Assembly (NCBI GenBank): GCA_040757115.1
Contig: JBFLYA010000246.1
Location: 1-5,522, forward strand
DNA from: a bacterium
GTDB taxonomy: Bacteria; UBA9089; CG2-30-40-21; SBAY01
DNA length: 5,522 nucleotides
Direction: 5' to 3'
In this document: positions 1-5,522 of the stretch, one piece after another
How positions within the stretch are numbered: position 1 is the stretch's first letter
Layout: each line of letters begins with the position of its first letter
Made by a program: the position numbers and the translations under genes
The notes under the pieces: model-generated
The model's input: the letters and a program-made list of their open reading frames with translations, nothing else
What the model was told of the DNA's origin: nothing
Databases searched by the model: none

Positions 1-144
1 ATAGTTGATAGTTTATAGTTGATAGTTTATAGTTGAAGGACTATAGACTATAAACTATAAACCATAAACTATAAACCATAAACTATAAACTATACACCAT
101 AAACTATAAACTATAAACCATAAACTATACACTATAAACTATAA
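1..144. repeat. Inverted array of 7-bp tandem repeats
   Basis: Positions 1-35 are five head-to-tail heptamers that alternate strictly ATAGTTG / ATAGTTT. After a 4-base junction (AAGG, 36-39), positions 40-144 hold fifteen heptamers of the form ACYATAV (mostly ACTATAA, with ACCATAA, ACTATAC and one ACTATAG) and no phase slip. The second block is the reverse complement family of the first, so the array changes direction at about 36-39 and the two sides could pair as an imperfect hairpin or cruciform. The left edge of the window cuts the array, so its true length is unknown. There are no spacers, so it is not a CRISPR array. Most variation is at unit positions 3 and 7. No gene is supported within it. 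Confidence 0.95.
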
Positions 145-215
145 ACGAGTTTTGCATTTTGCTTTGGAGGAAATTGATAAAAATAGAGGTTTTAAATACC
201 CGCTTAAAAACTACA

Positions 216-244
216 GTTTCATAGTTTTGCAGAACTATAGAAAC
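216..244 (+). other. Hairpin in the clpX leader
   Basis: GTTTC-ATAGTT (216-226) pairs with AACTAT-A-GAAAC (233-244) around the loop TTGCAG, giving an 11-bp stem with one bulged A at 239. No T-run follows, so it does not look like an intrinsic terminator. The stem contains ATAGTT and AACTATA, which resemble the heptamer units at 1-144, so it may be a degraded outlier of that array or a leader structure for clpX. The rest of 145-290 is AT-rich leader in which I found no convincing promoter. Confidence 0.5.
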
Positions 245-282
245 AAGGAAACAAGGGAGGGTTTTATTAACTTTATTCTCCT

Positions 283-287
283 GGAGG
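283..287 (+). promoter_or_regulatory. Ribosome binding site of clpX
   Basis: GGAGG lies 7 bases before the ATG at 295 and fixes that start. Another ATG at 291 overlaps it in a different frame but opens only three codons before a stop, so it is not the gene start. Confidence 0.85.
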
Positions 288-294
288 TAAATGA

Positions 295-1542
295 ATGCCT
301 AAATTTGGAAAAAAAGAAGAAGGACTTTTTTGTTCTTTCTGTAGCAAAGGACAGACAGAAGTAAAGAGATTAATTGCCGGTCCAGGGGTTTATATCTGCG
401 ATGAATGTGTCTTACTGTGTAATGAAATTATGGCTGAAGAGTGGTTTAATGATTACAAAGATACTCAAATAGGACTTTTACCACGGCCTAAAGAAATTAA
501 GGCAATATTAGATGAATATGTTATTGGACAGGAAAGGGCAAAAAAGATACTTGCAGTCGCTGTTTATAACCATTATAAAAGGATAAATGTAAGTATTAGA
601 AAATCCGATGTAGAATTAGAAAAAAGTAATATTGTCTTAATTGGTCCAACTGGTTCTGGAAAAACCCTCTTAGCTCAAACATTAGCCAGAATCCTTGATG
701 TCCCATGTGCGATTGTCGATGCAACCGCATTAACTGAGGCAGGCTATGTGGGTGAAGATGTAGAAAATATACTTCTTCAACTTGTTCAAAATGCTAATTT
801 TGACATAAAAAAGGCAGAAGCAGGAATAGTCTATATTGATGAAATAGATAAAATCGCTCGTAAAGGTGGAGATAATCCATCTATTACCCGTGATGTTTCT
901 GGAGAAGGTGTTCAACAGGGATTACTTAAAATCCTGGAAGGAACAATTGCTAATGTTCCACCACAAGGAGGACGAAAGCATCCGCATCAGGAATATATTC
1001 GGCTGAATACGATGAATATCCTCTTCATTTGTGGCGGAGCTTTTGTTGGATTAGAAAAGGTAGTTGAAGAAAGAATCGGCAAAAAAGTAATGGGATTTGG
1101 TGGTGATATTCAAAGTAGAGAAAAAAAGAAAATAGGAGAACTGTTACAACAACTTATTCCAGAAGACCTGTTAAAATATGGACTTATACCTGAGTTCGTA
1201 GGCAGATTACCAGTTATTGCCTCATTAAGCAGTTTAGAAAAAACTGATTTAATGCGAATTCTCACTGAGCCTAAAAATGCCTTGACCAAACAATATAAGA
1301 AATTCTTTGAGCTGGAAGGGATAAGATTAAAATTTACGGATGATGCCATCGATTTAATTGCAGATATTGCCCTGACACGAGAGACAGGAGCAAGAGGATT
1401 ACGAGCAGTAATTGAAGAAACAATGCTTGATATTATGTATGAAATACCTTCCAAAAGCAATATTAAAGAATGTGTTGTTACCAGAGAAGTCGTGTTAAAT
1501 AAAATTGCTCCAACTTTAGTCCTGCATAAAGAAACCGCATAA
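295..1542 (+). CDS. clpX: ATP-dependent Clp protease ATP-binding subunit ClpX
   Basis: ClpX is the hexameric AAA+ unfoldase that recognises tagged or damaged proteins in the cytoplasm and feeds them into the ClpP peptidase. The 415-residue product is full length (about 424 in E. coli). The N-terminal zinc-binding domain has its four cysteines at 13, 16, 35 and 38. The AAA+ core shows Walker A GPTGSGKT (117-124), the pore-1 loop GYVG (150-153), Walker B ending IDEID (181-185), the RKH substrate loop (227-229), the arginine finger in EFVGR (R304) and sensor 2 in GARGLR (R367). The ClpP-docking loop reads MGF (266-268) where the E. coli protein has IGF, a conservative change. No clpP is present in the window; the usual upstream position is occupied by repeat DNA at the window edge. 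No terminator is visible downstream, so it may be read through into the GH57 gene. Identification is very secure. Confidence 0.98.
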
Positions 1543-1563
1543 AGGATTATGCCTCGAAATCAG

Positions 1564-1576
1564 TGTGATTATCACA
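1564..1576. promoter_or_regulatory. Palindrome TGTGA-N3-TCACA, possible operator
   Basis: TGTGATTATCACA is a perfect 13-base palindrome around a central T, 59 bases before the GH57 start. Its half-sites equal the classic CRP/FNR-family TGTGA/TCACA, but the gap is 3 rather than 6 bases, so it would not suit a standard CRP dimer. A second short palindrome, CACCGGTG, follows at 1586-1593. The gap 1543-1634 holds nothing else recognisable except the ribosome binding site. A role as a transcription-factor site for the sugar-active gene is only a suggestion. Confidence 0.3.
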
Positions 1577-1620
1577 AACAATTTCCACCGGTGCAATTAG
1601 AAATAAAGGGATAATATTTT

Positions 1621-1626
1621 GGGAGG
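1621..1626 (+). promoter_or_regulatory. Ribosome binding site of the GH57 gene
   Basis: GGGAGG lies 8 bases before the ATG at 1635 and supports that start, which also places the family's first conserved motif (HFHQP) at residues 12-16, as expected at the N-terminus of GH57 enzymes. Confidence 0.8.
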
Positions 1627-1634
1627 AATATCAC

Positions 1635-3359
1635 ATGCTTCATAAAATATATTTAGCCTTTTTATGGCATTTTCATCAACCAATGTATAAAAATATCATT
1701 AATACTCAAAAAGGGGCATATTTTATGCCATGGGTAAGAATGCACTCGATAAGAGATTATTTTAGTATGGCATATTTACTTAAAAAATATCCCAAAATAC
1801 ATCTTACCTATAATTTTGTTCCATCTTTATTATGGCAAATTGAGGATTATGTTAATAATTCAGCCACAGATAGAGAATTAGAATTATCATTAAAACCCGT
1901 TTCTAAATTATCTCAAGGAGAGAAGAATTATATTTTAATGCACTTTTTTGATGGAAATTATGAAACTCAAATTTATCCATATCCTCGATATAAAGAGTTA
2001 TTGCAAAAAAGACAATCTAAAAAAACCTTTACCGGGCAAGATTTGATTGATTTAAAGATGTGGTTTAATTTAAGTTGGTTTGGGGAAATATTTAAACAAG
2101 GCGAGGTAACACTCCCGGATTCAAATATTCTCCCGGTTAAAGATTTTATAGAAAAGGATAGTGGATTTAAAGAAGATGATATTACTCAAATAATAGATTT
2201 GCAGTATAAAATTATGCGTAATATCATTCCTATTTATAAAAATCTTCAGGAGAAAGGTCAGATTGAAGTTTCTACCAGCCCATTTTACCATCCAATTATT
2301 CCTTTGATTTATGATACAAATCAGGCAACTATTGATAAAGAGGGATTGACATTGCCACCACGCTTTTCAATGCCAGGGGATGCAAAGGCACAGATTGATT
2401 TAGCCGTTGAGTATTATTCTAAGATATTTGGTCAACCGCCACGAGGGATGTGGCCATCAGAAGGGGCTGTAAGTCAATCGACTATTCATCTATTTGCTCA
2501 GGCTAATCTCAACTGGATTGCTACGGACCAGGGGGTATTACAGAAATCCGGTAAATATGGCTACGAGGCTTATAAGCCAGATGTCCTATGTTCACCTTAC
2601 TTAGCCTTCGATGAAGAGAAAAATTCAGAGATAACCATTTTCTTCCGCGAAACTAAATTATCTAATGTTATAAGTTTTGATTATCAAAGATATAGAGATT
2701 ACAAACAGGCGGCTATGGAATTTATTAATTGGGTAAAGGGATTTGCCCATAACGAAGACCGAATTTTAACTGTTATCCTTGATGGAGAAAATCCCTGGGG
2801 ATATTATCGTAAGACGGGCGTAGAATTTCTTAATGCCCTTTATAAAAATTTATCTAAAGATAAAGAAATTATTACAGTTACATTTTCAGAATACATCACT
2901 GGTAATTCTGCTCGAGGTATTTTAGCCCATCCTAAAGAGACTCAAAAAAAGGTTTATGACCTATTTTGTGCCAGCTGGATAGACCAGGCCGGGTCTATGC
3001 CCGGAAATGACCTTGGCACCTGGATAGGTGATAAAGAAAAGAATAATGCCTGGAATTTACTCCGTTTGGTTAGGGAGGATTTAGACAAAAAGGGTATTAC
3101 CCCACAAAACTATCCACAGGTGTTTGAATCAATCTATGCGGCAGAAGGAAGCGATTGGTTCTGGTGGTATGGCACTGATTACTCAAGTGACCGTGATGAC
3201 CAGTTTGATACATTATTTAAAGACCATTTAAAAAATGCCTATTTGCGATTAGGATTGACATCAAGTCTCACCCAAAATTCTGTTAACATAACTTCAAATT
3301 TAGGTAACCCTTCAGATAGTAATTCACCGCAGAGACGCAGAGGAACGGAGAAGACATAG
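1635..3359 (+). CDS. Glycoside hydrolase family 57 protein (alpha-amylase/amylopullulanase-like)
   Basis: GH57 enzymes cleave or transfer alpha-glucan chains (starch, glycogen, pullulan) by a retaining mechanism on a (beta/alpha)7 barrel. The conserved regions can be read in order: HFHQP (12-16), QIEVSTSPFYHP (209-220), GMWPSEGAV with the expected nucleophile E276, WIATDQG (294-300), DGENPWGYY with the expected acid/base D383, and the aromatic SDWFWWYG segment (506-513). These fit the alpha-amylase/amylopullulanase branch better than the 4-alpha-glucanotransferase or branching-enzyme branches, but exact substrate cannot be read from sequence. There is no signal peptide, so it probably acts in the cytoplasm, perhaps on a storage glucan. 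The 574-residue protein stops soon after the helix following the WFWWYG motif; multidomain relatives often continue further. Residues 564-574 (SPQRRRGTEKT) are encoded by an intergenic repeat, so the native C-terminus has probably been replaced or extended. Family call is very sure; activity is moderately sure. Confidence 0.93.
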   Translation: MLHKIYLAFLWHFHQPMYKNIINTQKGAYFMPWVRMHSIRDYFSMAYLLKKYPKIHLTYNFVPSLLWQIEDYVNNSATDRELELSLKPVSKLSQGEKNYILMHFFDGNYETQIYPYPRYKELLQKRQSKKTFTGQDLIDLKMWFNLSWFGEIFKQGEVTLPDSNILPVKDFIEKDSGFKEDDITQIIDLQYKIMRNIIPIYKNLQEKGQIEVSTSPFYHPIIPLIYDTNQATIDKEGLTLPPRFSMPGDAKAQIDLAVEYYSKIFGQPPRGMWPSEGAVSQSTIHLFAQANLNWIATDQGVLQKSGKYGYEAYKPDVLCSPYLAFDEEKNSEITIFFRETKLSNVISFDYQRYRDYKQAAMEFINWVKGFAHNEDRILTVILDGENPWGYYRKTGVEFLNALYKNLSKDKEIITVTFSEYITGNSARGILAHPKETQKKVYDLFCASWIDQAGSMPGNDLGTWIGDKEKNNAWNLLRLVREDLDKKGITPQNYPQVFESIYAAEGSDWFWWYGTDYSSDRDDQFDTLFKDHLKNAYLRLGLTSSLTQNSVNITSNLGNPSDSNSPQRRRGTEKT

Positions 3360-3407
3360 AAATAAATCAGATAACAGAAAAGAGAGTAGAAAGGCACAAG
3401 GTTTTCT

Positions 3408-3431
3408 GACTACTGACTATTGACTACTGAT
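3408..3431. repeat. Three-copy 7-bp tandem repeat TGACTAY
   Basis: TGACTAC (3408-3414), TGACTAT (3415-3421) and TGACTAC (3422-3428) follow each other directly, with a partial TGA at 3429-3431. It has the same 7-bp period as the array at the left end of the window but an unrelated unit sequence, and sits inside the 3326-3503 inverted-repeat element. Confidence 0.85.
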
Positions 3432-3458
3432 TTAATGTTGCGCTACTCAAGAGCTTGC

Positions 3459-3476
3459 CCTGATGAAAATCAGGGA
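3459..3476. other. 7-bp hairpin with GAAA tetraloop
   Basis: CCCTGAT (3459-3465) and ATCAGGG (3470-3476) form a perfect stem closed by GAAA, a stable GNRA-type tetraloop when read as + strand RNA. The following bases (ATGTTATGCG) are not a T-run, so it is not a typical intrinsic terminator. It could protect or end the GH57 transcript, or simply be a structural part of the repeat element. Confidence 0.6.
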
Positions 3477-3524
3477 TGTTATGCGTCTCTGCGTCTCTGC
3501 GGTAAACGGTGGCTAAAATTTCAG

Positions 3525-3553
3525 TTGCTTTTTTAAAAGATTAGATGTATAAT
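3525..3553 (+). promoter_or_regulatory. Sigma-70-type promoter of dapF
   Basis: TTGCTT (3525-3530) and a perfect TATAAT (3548-3553) are separated by exactly 17 bases. The -35 box matches the consensus at only three of six positions, but the -10 is ideal and the spacing is optimal. Transcription would be expected to begin about 7 bases after the -10, at or next to 3560, which is the A of the ATG favoured for dapF. This would start a new transcription unit (dapF and the isomerase gene) immediately after the repeat element. Confidence 0.6.
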
Positions 3554-3559
3554 AAAGTT

Positions 3560-4375
3560 ATGGTTGAAATCTGTTTTACTAAAATGGTTGCCAGTGGAAA
3601 TGACTTTATCGTGATAGATAATCGGGATGGGGTAATTGATGTTACCCCTGGTTTAGTCAGGAAGATATGTCAGCGTAAGTTTGGTATTGGTGCGAATGGT
3701 GTGCTTATTGTCGAGCGGTCAAAACTCGCTGATTTCAGAATGAGAATTATCAACTCCGATGGTTCTGAAGCTGAAATGTGTGGTAATGGGGGAAGATGTA
3801 TTGCCAGATTTGCTCAAATAAAAGAAATAGCTAAAAACAAAATGAAATTTGAAACATTAGCCGGGATAATTTTGGCTGAAGTAACAAACAACCGCGTAAA
3901 AGTTAAACTCACAGACCCACTAAATCTTTTCCTCAACAAAAAAATCCGCATAAAAGATAAAGAACTGACTGTGCACTGTTTAAATACAGGTGTGCCACAC
4001 GCTGTTTTAATCCTTGACGAAATAGAAAAGGTAGAGGTAGTAGAATCAGGTAAGCAGATTAGATGGCATCAGGATTTTGCGCCTGCCGGGACTAATGTCA
4101 ACTTTATTCAGGTAATCGATAACCAGACGATTAAAATAAGAACTTATGAGCGGGGCGTAGAGGATGAAACATTAGCCTGTGGCACTGGCTCAGCCGCCTC
4201 GGCTTGTATTTCCTCTATCTTAGAACTTGCAAAACCACCCGTAAAAATGATAACTAAAAGTGGTGAAATCCTTGAGATAGATTTTGAAAAGGATAAAGAG
4301 GTAATCACTAACCTTTATCTCACAGGCGATGTCCAGATTGTCTATGAAGGGGTAATAATGGAGGTAAAAACATAA
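3560..4375 (+). CDS. dapF: Diaminopimelate epimerase
   Basis: DapF interconverts LL- and meso-diaminopimelate in the cytoplasm, the penultimate step to lysine and the source of meso-DAP for peptidoglycan. It needs no cofactor and uses two cysteines. Numbered from 3560, these are C74 in EMCGNGGRC and C207 in ETLACGTGS. Other family signatures are SGNDF (12-16), NTGVPH (142-147), APAGTNVNF and YERGVEDE (196-203). The start at 3560 gives 271 residues, close to the 274 of the E. coli enzyme, and places the first cysteine near its E. coli position (73). An in-frame ATG at 3545 would add five residues, but it directly abuts the TATAAT box and neither start has a Shine-Dalgarno sequence, so a leaderless mRNA starting at 3560 is the best reading. 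The next gene starts immediately after the stop codon. Function is very secure, start moderately so. Confidence 0.97.
   Translation: MVEICFTKMVASGNDFIVIDNRDGVIDVTPGLVRKICQRKFGIGANGVLIVERSKLADFRMRIINSDGSEAEMCGNGGRCIARFAQIKEIAKNKMKFETLAGIILAEVTNNRVKVKLTDPLNLFLNKKIRIKDKELTVHCLNTGVPHAVLILDEIEKVEVVESGKQIRWHQDFAPAGTNVNFIQVIDNQTIKIRTYERGVEDETLACGTGSAASACISSILELAKPPVKMITKSGEILEIDFEKDKEVITNLYLTGDVQIVYEGVIMEVKT
4360..4364 (+). promoter_or_regulatory. Ribosome binding site of the isomerase gene, inside dapF
   Basis: GGAGG within the last codons of dapF lies 11 bases before the ATG at 4376, slightly long spacing. With the dapF stop TAA directly abutting the ATG, this suggests translational coupling of the two genes. 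Confidence 0.7.
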
Positions 4376-5323
4376 ATGAAAAAAATAATCTTAGGAGTGG
4401 TATTAAGTATTTGTTCATTGCAAGCACAGGCACAGACTAAAACTGTGGTTTTAGTTAATGATGTCCCAATTACAGAGGCTAAATTAGTTCAGGCAATGAA
4501 ACCTTACGAGGCTGAAATTGCGGGCTCGCAAACGGTGTATCTTAAAATCCGTGAAAAGGTATTAGATGCCTTAATTGAGGAGGAATTGGTTATTCAAGAG
4601 GCAGAGGTAAGAAAAATTGAAATTCCCCGGGAGGAAATTGAACAGATTATCAATGTCATCAAAGGCAGATTCGAATCTGAGGAAAAGTTTAAATTAGCCG
4701 TTGAAACAGCAGGAATGAGTATGGAAGAATTTAATGAAAAGGTAAAAAGAGATTTACTTTTCCAGCGAATTAAGGATATAGAACTTAAAAAAAGGCTTAC
4801 CGTAACTCAAGAAGAAGTAGATAATTTCTGTAAAGATTATGGGAAAAAGGTTCATGCCCAACATATCCTCGTTAACACTGAAAAAGAAGCATTAGATATT
4901 CTTCAGAAGGCTCAGTCTGGTGCGGATTTTAGTCAATTGGCGGCGACATATTCTCTCTGTCCATCCCGGCAAATGGGTGGTGATTTAGGTTTTTTTGGTA
5001 AAGGACAAATGGTGCCAGAATTTGAACAAGCCGCTTTTTCAATGAATAAAGAAGGGCAATTAAGTGGTGTGGTTAAAACCCAATTTGGCTGCCATATCAT
5101 CAGATTTATTGCTAAAAAAGACCCCTCACCAGAAGAAATTACCTCAATCAAAACCGCACTTATGAACGAATTGTTTGGCAGAACATATTTTATTACGGGT
5201 AATGGATTAGATTTTGAAATAAAACGAAATTTAGAAGAGAGATTTATTGGTCAAAAGTTAGGAGTAGAATATATCATCTGGCTTTTTGAACTTAAAAATA
5301 AGGCAAAGATTGTGAAAATGTAA
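4376..5323 (+). CDS. Secreted parvulin-type peptidyl-prolyl cis-trans isomerase (SurA/PpiC-like)
   Basis: Such proteins catalyse proline isomerisation and act as chaperones for exported or outer-membrane proteins. Residues 1-19 form a signal peptide (KK, hydrophobic core, AQA before the likely cleavage after A19); the one cysteine in it (C13) is not in a good lipobox, so a soluble periplasmic protein is more likely than a lipoprotein. Residues 24-150 are a helical, charged SurA-N-like chaperone region. The parvulin domain runs from about 158 to 246, with HAQHIL (160-165), GGDLGFFGKGQMV (201-213) and FGCHII (237-242); the two motif histidines H160 and H240 are present. The C-terminal helix expected in the family can be recognised at 293-313, but about 25 residues (268-292) between it and the preceding helix look extra. 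There is one parvulin domain, unlike the two of E. coli SurA. It is probably co-transcribed with dapF. Confidence 0.92.
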   Translation: MKKIILGVVLSICSLQAQAQTKTVVLVNDVPITEAKLVQAMKPYEAEIAGSQTVYLKIREKVLDALIEEELVIQEAEVRKIEIPREEIEQIINVIKGRFESEEKFKLAVETAGMSMEEFNEKVKRDLLFQRIKDIELKKRLTVTQEEVDNFCKDYGKKVHAQHILVNTEKEALDILQKAQSGADFSQLAATYSLCPSRQMGGDLGFFGKGQMVPEFEQAAFSMNKEGQLSGVVKTQFGCHIIRFIAKKDPSPEEITSIKTALMNELFGRTYFITGNGLDFEIKRNLEERFIGQKLGVEYIIWLFELKNKAKIVKM

Positions 5324-5381
5324 CTATTCCGCCACTGATTATAGCACTTATTAATCGAAATTTGACATAGATATGGCTATG

Positions 5382-5522
5382 AAATTCCAAATCACAAATT
5401 CCAAATTCCATTTAGTGAATTAGTGAATTAAGCGAATTAGCGAATTAGTAAAATCTAATCTCTAATTCACTAATCTCTAATTCGCTTTTTGGTATGTGGA
5501 ATTTGGTGCTTATTTGAGATTT
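5382..5522. repeat. Nested inverted-repeat element of 7- and 8-bp units, cut by window end
   Basis: The outer left arm is four phased heptamers (AAATTCC, AAATCAC, AAATTCC, AAATTCC; 5382-5409). The inner left arm is a run of 8- to 9-bp units TTAGTGAA / TTAAGCGAA / TTAGCGAA (5412-5448). The inner right arm (5455-5487) is the reversed family CTAATCT / CTAATTCA / CTAATTCG; AAGCGAATTAG at 5430-5440 is matched exactly by 5477-5487. The outer right arm begins at 5497: 5497-5506 is the exact reverse complement of 5401-5410, and 5513-5522 matches 5389-5398 with one mismatch. The element probably continues past the window. The 58 bases between the isomerase stop and 5382 contain only a weak 5-bp hairpin (CATAG/CTATG, 5366-5381) and no clear terminator. 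Confidence 0.9.

What the first reader, a model, noticed from the sequence alone, without database searches (positions are those of the whole stretch)
1..5522. Three gaps, one architecture: 7-8 bp phased units in palindromic layout with unrelated unit sequences
Seen: the arrays at 1-144 (ACTATAA family), 3326-3503 (GCAGAGAC arms, TGACTAY core) and 5382-5522 (AAATTCC outer, TTAGTGAA inner) all use 7- or 8-bp periods and all contain a reversal of direction. The unit sequences do not resemble each other, so they are not copies of one element; what is shared is period and symmetry. Known: short tandemly repeated heptamers are documented in cyanobacteria, and palindromic REP/MITE elements are common, but combinations with a different unit in each gap are less familiar to me. 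Inference: a common process (template-switching replication slippage, or a protein or enzyme that sees a 7-bp period) may generate or maintain them.
Basis: partly seen in the sequence, partly recalled or inferred. Interest (0 to 1): 0.7.

Follow-up and report, generated by a model that had tools for sequence, protein, structure and literature searches.

The report
Mobile hairpin cassettes with heptamer arms
The three repeat patches are remains of three different families of small mobile DNA elements whose folded arms are built from 7- or 8-letter repeats, and in many unrelated bacteria such arms surround one of two tiny genes of unknown function, with the repeat length following the gene family, which suggests where a long-puzzling kind of bacterial repeat comes from.

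Summary
The three gaps carry short-period arrays that reverse direction, with unrelated units (fold z -4.1 to -6.8). Each is a copy of a different dispersed multicopy element: A 1-240, B 3304-3513, C 5340-5522, with different ends and target duplications (9-13 bp, 8 bp, TA). Sibling copies show their source. A and C descend from cassettes carrying an S23p/23S-IVP "four helix bundle" ORF (PF05635/TIGR02436); B descends from one carrying a GxxExxY ORF (PF13366). Across many unrelated genomes, S23p ORFs are flanked by inverted arrays with a locus-private unit (53/58, 20/21 and 15/16 loci), mostly 7 bp. GxxExxY ORFs carry 8-10 bp arrays (33/42, 13/17). Controls: dapF 1/19, clpX 7/72, Y1 transposase 5/22. 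The period follows the ORF family (Fisher 6e-17; replication 3e-5). Natural empty sites on complete cyanobacterial plasmids show arms plus ORF inserting as one unit, without a transposase. An ORF-less heptamer palindrome sits cleanly inside an S23p ORF. The mobilising enzyme and the reason for the period are not known. The window copies are decayed and nothing suggests a host function.

The parts
1..240 (+). Element A (right part; the left part is cut by the contig start): deletion derivative of an S23p cassette. Its right end TTTTGCAGAACTATAG is at 225-240.
   Evidence: About 30 copies of 147-245 and >170 partial matches in 1.55 Mb. Full copies run TAGGGTTCTGCAAAATAGGA...TTTTGCAGAACTCTA with 9-13-bp flank duplications. 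Absent between clpP and clpX in sister genome G001. Sibling copies hold a remnant 95% identical to intact PF05635 ORFs.
1..36 (+). Left arm array, ATAGTTG/ATAGTTT, period 7
   Evidence: TRF
40..146 (+). Right arm array, ACTATAA, period 7, inverse of 1-36
   Evidence: TRF; fold z -6.8
3304..3513 (+). Element B: ORF-less derivative of a GxxExxY cassette. End GTAACCCTTCAG at 3304-3315; decayed right end GTAAACGGTGGC at ~3502-3513.
   Evidence: About 70 related places in G000 and about 56 in G001. The GTAASCGTTCA family has exact 8-bp duplications in 50 of 143 pairs against 0.7 expected.
3326..3342 (+). Left arm ACCGCAGAGACGCAGAG (8-bp unit)
   Evidence: Sequence; pairs with 3483-3503
3356..3382 (+). 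Remnant of the start of a GxxExxY ORF, (M)EINQITEK
   Evidence: Same DNA leads into an intact PF13366 ORF in L114; 59 PF13366 matches in G000
3406..3430 (+). Inner TGACTAY heptamer module
   Evidence: TRF
3458..3475 (+). Inner short palindrome CCCTGATGAAAATCAGGG, itself repeated in the phylum
3483..3503 (+). Right arm GCGTCTCTGCGTCTCTGCGGT
   Evidence: TRF, fold
5340..5522 (+). Element C (left 183 bp of a ~220-280-bp element; the right end is lost at the contig end). End TATAGCACTTATTA at 5340-5353.
   Evidence: At least 25 near-full copies (92-100%) in G000 and about 20 in G001; full copies end TAATAACTGCTATA, bounded by TA
5382..5410 (+). AAATTCC arm; elsewhere in this genome the upstream arm of a truncated TIGR02436 ORF
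   Evidence: TRF
5412..5486 (+). Inner palindrome TTAGTGAA ... TTCACTAA; other copies carry a different core here
   Evidence: TRF

Best explanation
The three arrays are arms and cores of small non-autonomous mobile elements of three different families. They descend from, or were assembled out of, hairpin cassettes: a tiny ORF (S23p/23S-IVP four-helix bundle, or GxxExxY PD-(D/E)XK-like) between two inverted short-period arrays. SHOWN: the cassettes exist in many unrelated bacterial families; the period follows the ORF family; arms plus ORF are present or absent as one block; ORF-less palindromes arise at the same sites and also insert on their own; the window elements are members or derivatives. 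INFERRED: the cassette carries no transposase, so it is moved in trans; what is recognised is the folded array, its period and symmetry, and not a fixed end sequence; the arms are kept mirror-identical by hairpin-templated copying, so unit sequence drifts while period stays; the encoded protein acts on its own arrayed hairpin and thereby fixes the period. In this genus fragments have also ended up inside elements with conventional ends (8-bp, 9-13-bp and TA duplications), which amplified them. The confidence given is for the identity and descent; for the inferred mechanism of movement it is about 0.35.
For: Dispersed copies and ends. Origin of the window pieces: (B), 107, 110 with 34 (A), 28, 107, 108 (C). 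Arrays around ORFs: with dapF, clpX and Y1_Tnp controls. Mirrored arms including variant units: L262 36/36, L243 30/30. Filled/empty sites: Trichormus and Scytonema against Nostoc linckia, with GTAAT duplicated, and Brasilonema with an ORF-less heptamer palindrome at the same place. Reciprocal Nostoc sites. Picosynechococcus PCC 7003 against 7002 inside a CRISPR operon. ORF-less palindrome inside the S23p ORF of Nostoc N6. ORF present in G001, ORF-less array at the same site in G000. Independent reports: Coxiella IVS has GACAGAT heptamers before its S23p ORF (PMC4990558); Xanthomonas has about 70 inverted heptamer pairs (PMC4692102) and a solved S23p structure, 2GSC, carries the locus name XCC0516.
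Against: No transposition was observed and no mobilising enzyme was identified. The cassette target duplication is clear at only one of four empty sites. Within families A, B and C the ends are conventional, so ordinary transposases could do all the moving and the arrays could be passengers. Five of 58 discovery-set S23p loci have no array by the threshold used. Two GxxExxY plasmid loci had none. The A remnant itself scores no PF05635 match; the link runs through near-identical intact ORFs. About a quarter to 40% of the arrays beside S23p ORFs have periods other than 7/14.
Confidence: 0.82

Rival explanations
1. Ordinary MITEs only: conventional transposases mobilise elements A, B and C through their terminal ends, and the short-period arrays are incidental low-complexity filler that expands by slippage.
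For: Each window family has its own ends and target duplication. Cores vary between copies of one element.
Against: Arrays flank S23p and GxxExxY ORFs in unrelated bacteria without shared ends, in inverted layout and with ORF-specific period. Cassettes and ORF-less palindromes insert with no such ends.
Confidence: 0.25
2. In-place replication slippage and template switching in each gap, with 7 bp favoured by the DNA polymerase footprint (as discussed in PMC4692102 and PMC4679880).
For: Heptamers are the commonest period in this genome. Copies of one element differ by whole units.
Against: Near-identical dispersed copies, target duplications and empty sites. The period depends on the neighbouring ORF family, which a polymerase footprint does not predict.
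Confidence: 0.07
3. RNA-level retro-mobility: the hairpin transcript is copied by a reverse transcriptase in trans, with S23p acting like its relative Avd of diversity-generating retroelements.
For: The S23p in L262 scores weakly against the Avd model, below its cut-off. PMC10053308 notes PF05635 resembles Avd. A cassette folds as RNA (z -2.9). The insertions examined lie behind stop codons, co-directional with operon genes.
Against: No reverse transcriptase association was tested. GxxExxY cassettes share the layout without an Avd-like protein.
Confidence: 0.15
4. Single-stranded hairpin transposition by Y1 (RAYT/IS200-type) transposases, as for REP elements.
For: Palindromic intergenic elements; counted, Y1 genes occur in 26 of 32 genomes with S23p and 12 of 29 without.
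Against: Genome G014 has 11 S23p matches and no Y1 match. Y1 loci lack such arrays (5/22, none on both sides). Genome size confounds the association.
Confidence: 0.1
5. The arrays are host regulatory sites (translation control or terminators) kept by selection.
For: Many A copies sit just upstream of ribosome binding sites. A similar suggestion was made for TAACTGA repeats (PMC4679880).
Against: Presence or absence differs between close relatives at the same gene. No unit conservation.
Confidence: 0.06

Closest known systems
23S rRNA intervening sequences (IVS) with an S23p ORF, e.g. Coxiella burnetii (PMC4990558)
   Same: Small selfish element; terminal inverted repeats form a stem; S23p (PF05635) ORF in the loop; Coxiella's has GACAGAT heptamers before the ORF, varying in number between strains.
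   Different: The elements here lie in protein-gene spacers, use locus-private 7-bp arrays as both arms, have ORF-less derivatives, and extend to a second ORF family (GxxExxY) with 8-10-bp arms.
Cyanobacterial short tandemly repeated (STRR) heptamers and TAACTGA repeats (PMC4679880)
   Same: Intergenic heptamer arrays with variable copy number and sporadic phylogenetic spread.
   Different: Described as direct repeats without a linked ORF; here the arrays are inverted pairs around, or derived from around, a specific ORF family.
Xanthomonas GGGAATC heptamers (PMC4692102)
   Same: About 70 close inverted pairs per genome, in intergenic DNA; S23p is encoded in the same species (by the locus name of structure 2GSC).
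   Different: Interpreted as G-quadruplex repeats; no link to S23p was reported in the parts read. I could not test that genome here.
MITEs
   Same: Short, non-coding, inverted ends, target duplications, many dispersed copies (families A, B, C).
   Different: The cores are exchangeable arrayed palindromes shared between families with different ends; intact cassettes carry a non-transposase ORF.
REP/RAYT elements
   Same: Short intergenic palindromes in many copies.
   Different: Periodic arms; locus-private sequences; not linked to Y1 transposase genes in the test made.

Membership tests
MITE | Terminal inverted repeats | tested here: met
   A, B and C full copies have matching inverted ends; in the window itself A and C are truncated
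MITE | Target-site duplication | tested here: met
   B family 8 bp in 50/143 pairs (null 0.7); A 9-13 bp in 7 of 11; C bounded by TA, which is part of the searched ends and therefore weak evidence
MITE | Autonomous transposase partner with the same ends | tested here: inconclusive
   No transposase ORF found between matching ends in 36% of the genome
23S rRNA IVS | S23p/PF05635 ORF in the loop | tested here: met
   Met for intact cassettes; only remnants in siblings of A and C, none for B
23S rRNA IVS | Located in the 23S rRNA gene and excised by RNase III | tested here: not met
   The window elements and the annotated loci examined lie between protein or tRNA genes; excision not testable
STRR heptamer repeats | Intergenic tandem heptamers | tested here: met
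STRR heptamer repeats | Catalogued unit sequences | not tested
   No STRR catalogue available; the literature search for the units found nothing relevant
REP/RAYT | Association with Y1 (RAYT) transposase | tested here: not met
   Y1 loci lack such arrays and a genome with 11 S23p matches has no Y1 match

The most novel reading that the evidence does not exclude
S23p and GxxExxY cassettes form a new class of mobile element in which period and mirror symmetry of the hairpin arms, not end sequence, are the recognised signal, with the encoded protein setting the period (7 against 8-10). Most heptamer arrays known in bacteria would then be their debris.
Probability: 0.4. Interest if true: 0.92.

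Novelty: new variant of a known kind. Interest (0 to 1): 0.76.

Why it matters
Heptamer arrays in bacteria (cyanobacterial STRRs, Xanthomonas, Beggiatoaceae) have had no agreed origin. A rule that ties array period and inverted layout to two specific small ORF families turns this into a testable question about a mobile element. It also gives a working hypothesis for two very widespread protein families without known function, and provides natural filled/empty sites to work with. If the period rule holds in a full survey, element recognition by periodicity and symmetry rather than by sequence would be new.

Tried and rejected
Searching papers for the unit strings gave only an unrelated paper. 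NCBIfam and Pfam gave nothing significant for the A remnant itself, so it was linked through 95% identity to intact PF05635 ORFs. One Pfam call failed on coordinates. No autonomous transposase was found between matching ends. S23p and GxxExxY queries have no match in phages. A Y1/RAYT driver was considered and disfavoured. 23S IVS membership in the strict sense was rejected because these loci are not in rRNA genes. A regulatory role was considered and ranked low.

Full report
What the window is. It is one complete 5522-bp contig (C246) of a 4.3-Mb, 462-contig genome, with clpX, a GH57 glycosidase, dapF and a PpiC/SurA-type gene. Both ends stop inside repeats, probably because the assembly broke there, so elements A and C are truncated.

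TRF confirms all arrays and periods; each gap reverses direction, and each folds far better than shuffles (z -6.8, -6.5, -4.1). In 1.55 Mb of the same genome there are 383 period-7 rows against none in an order-5 Markov control, from dozens of unrelated units. They avoid ORFs (16% against 78% of sequence). 38% have an inverted partner nearby against 4% in a mismatched control.

Three gaps, three element families. C (5340-5522) is a near-exact copy of an element with at least 25 near-full copies in this genome and about 20 in a same-genus genome. Full copies run TATAGCACTTATTA...TAATAACTGCTATA, and their cores differ: TTAGTGAA palindrome, a different core after AAATTCC, or an ACTATAA/GATAGTT palindrome. 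B (3304-3513) belongs to a large family with ends GTAASCGTTCA. 50 of 143 pairs of such ends in the sampled genome have exact 8-bp flank duplications, against 0.7 expected. A (1-240) is the right part of an element running TAGGGTTCTGCAAAA...TTTTGCAGAACTCTA with 9-13-bp duplications. In the sister genome G001 the clpP-clpX spacer has no A element although the following DNA is 98.8% identical. The GH57 gene's last codons are written by element B; in G001 another GTAACTGTTCAG-type element sits at nearly the same place.

Where they come from. Many B copies continue into a GxxExxY ORF (PF13366, TIGR04256); the window keeps its first codons at 3356-3382. The host genome has 59 PF13366 matches, mostly pieces. 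A copies contain pieces of an ORF. Its N-terminal stretch is 95% identical to intact PF05635 (S23p, 23S-IVP) ORFs at C50 and C211, with 73 such pieces in G000 and 4 in G001. The AAATTCC arm of C is elsewhere the upstream arm of a truncated four-helix-bundle ORF (TIGR02436, E 2.5e-9).

The rule. In loci from many genomes, S23p ORFs sit between arrays whose upstream unit is the reverse complement of the downstream unit, with a different unit at nearly every locus. In a de-duplicated set, 53 of 58 S23p loci have an array (periods 7: 62; 14: 6; 8: 8; 9: 5; few others). 33 of 42 GxxExxY loci do (8: 23; 9: 14; 10: 6; 7: 1). Controls: dapF 1/19, clpX 7/72. A second set, taken around another genome (G058), gives 20/21 (7: 18; 8: 8; 9: 4) and 13/17 (8: 4; 9: 6; 10: 5; no 7). 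Y1 transposase loci give 5/22, none on both sides. Period 7/14 against other, S23p against GxxExxY: Fisher 6e-17 and 3e-5. Arrays and loci within a genome are not fully independent, so these p-values are indicative. In complete, named plasmids of cyanobacteria, Azospirillum, Gemmatirosa and Riemerella, 15 of 16 S23p loci have an array by the same threshold and all 16 with a laxer one. Arms are mirrored down to variant units in the best cases. Two GxxExxY plasmid loci showed none.

Mobility. On related conjugative cyanobacterial plasmids, Trichormus and Scytonema carry array-S23p-array where Nostoc linckia has the uninterrupted site (five more plasmids give the same alignment gap); GTAAT is duplicated and the target holds no array. 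Brasilonema has an ORF-less heptamer palindrome at the same place, and Nostoc C052 has an arm plus an ORF stub. Two Nostoc plasmids are reciprocally filled and empty at neighbouring junctions. Picosynechococcus PCC 7003 has a cassette between cas10 and cmr3 where PCC 7002 has none. In Nostoc N6 an ORF-less heptamer palindrome lies inside the S23p ORF. At one site G001 has the ORF and G000 only the arrays; between a tRNA-Leu and gyrA the two genomes carry different S23p cassettes with different arrays. Where the flanks were read, insertions lie just behind stop codons and the ORF is co-directional; that is four sites, so a tendency only.

Interpretation. Shown: the association, the period rule, block-wise presence/absence, and descent of the window pieces. 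Inferred: movement in trans, recognition of structure and period, templated copying keeping the arms mirrored, and the encoded protein acting on its own hairpin. Unknown: the enzyme. Reverse transcriptase and Y1 routes are rivals; a genome with 11 S23p matches and no Y1 match speaks against Y1. Conventional transposases probably moved families A and B in this genus, judging by their target duplications, and perhaps C.

Prior knowledge. IVS elements in 23S rRNA carry S23p and are called selfish; Coxiella's has heptamers before the ORF (PMC4990558). S23p resembles Avd (PMC10053308). Xanthomonas has about 70 inverted heptamer pairs per genome, explained there through quadruplexes (PMC4692102); the solved S23p 2GSC is annotated XCC0516. 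TAACTGA arrays in Beggiatoaceae and cyanobacteria were left without a mechanism (PMC4679880). No paper found links arrays in general to these ORFs, but only open-access papers were searchable.

Limits. Only 36% of the host genome was read. G001 is listed at 5% contamination.

Noticed in passing
window 1582-1624: A ~42-bp stretch in the clpX-GH57 spacer recurs dispersed in the genome (about a dozen places at 87-98%), typically with CACCTGTGCAATTAGAAATAAA; another small repeat family.
   Followed up: partly
L010:5470-5701 and many loci: A ~230-bp element with ends GTAASCGTTCAGG and AAGGAGAT arrays in its arms, many near-identical copies; a relative of family B by its ends.
   Followed up: partly
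L254 (G000:C42), around 1240-1950: The S23p cassette lies among copies of a ~36-bp repeat (GTAGGAAAATAAGACCTGATGAATAAGGGATTGCGAC) that looks like a CRISPR array.
   Followed up: no
L322, L323, L325: S23p cassettes sit inside CRISPR-Cas operons of cyanobacterial plasmids (cas10/cmr3, cas6/cas4).
   Followed up: partly
L305 (G001) and L121 (G000): The tRNA-Leu-gyrA spacer carries different S23p cassettes with different arrays in two sister genomes, same place and orientation: an insertion hotspot or replacement.
   Followed up: partly
window 3304-3359: The GH57 reading frame ends inside element B, so its last residues (SPQRRRGTEKT) are encoded by the array.
   Followed up: yes
G026: One genome has paired short PF05635 matches in opposite orientation a few hundred bp apart at several places; may be a different use of the family.
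   Followed up: no
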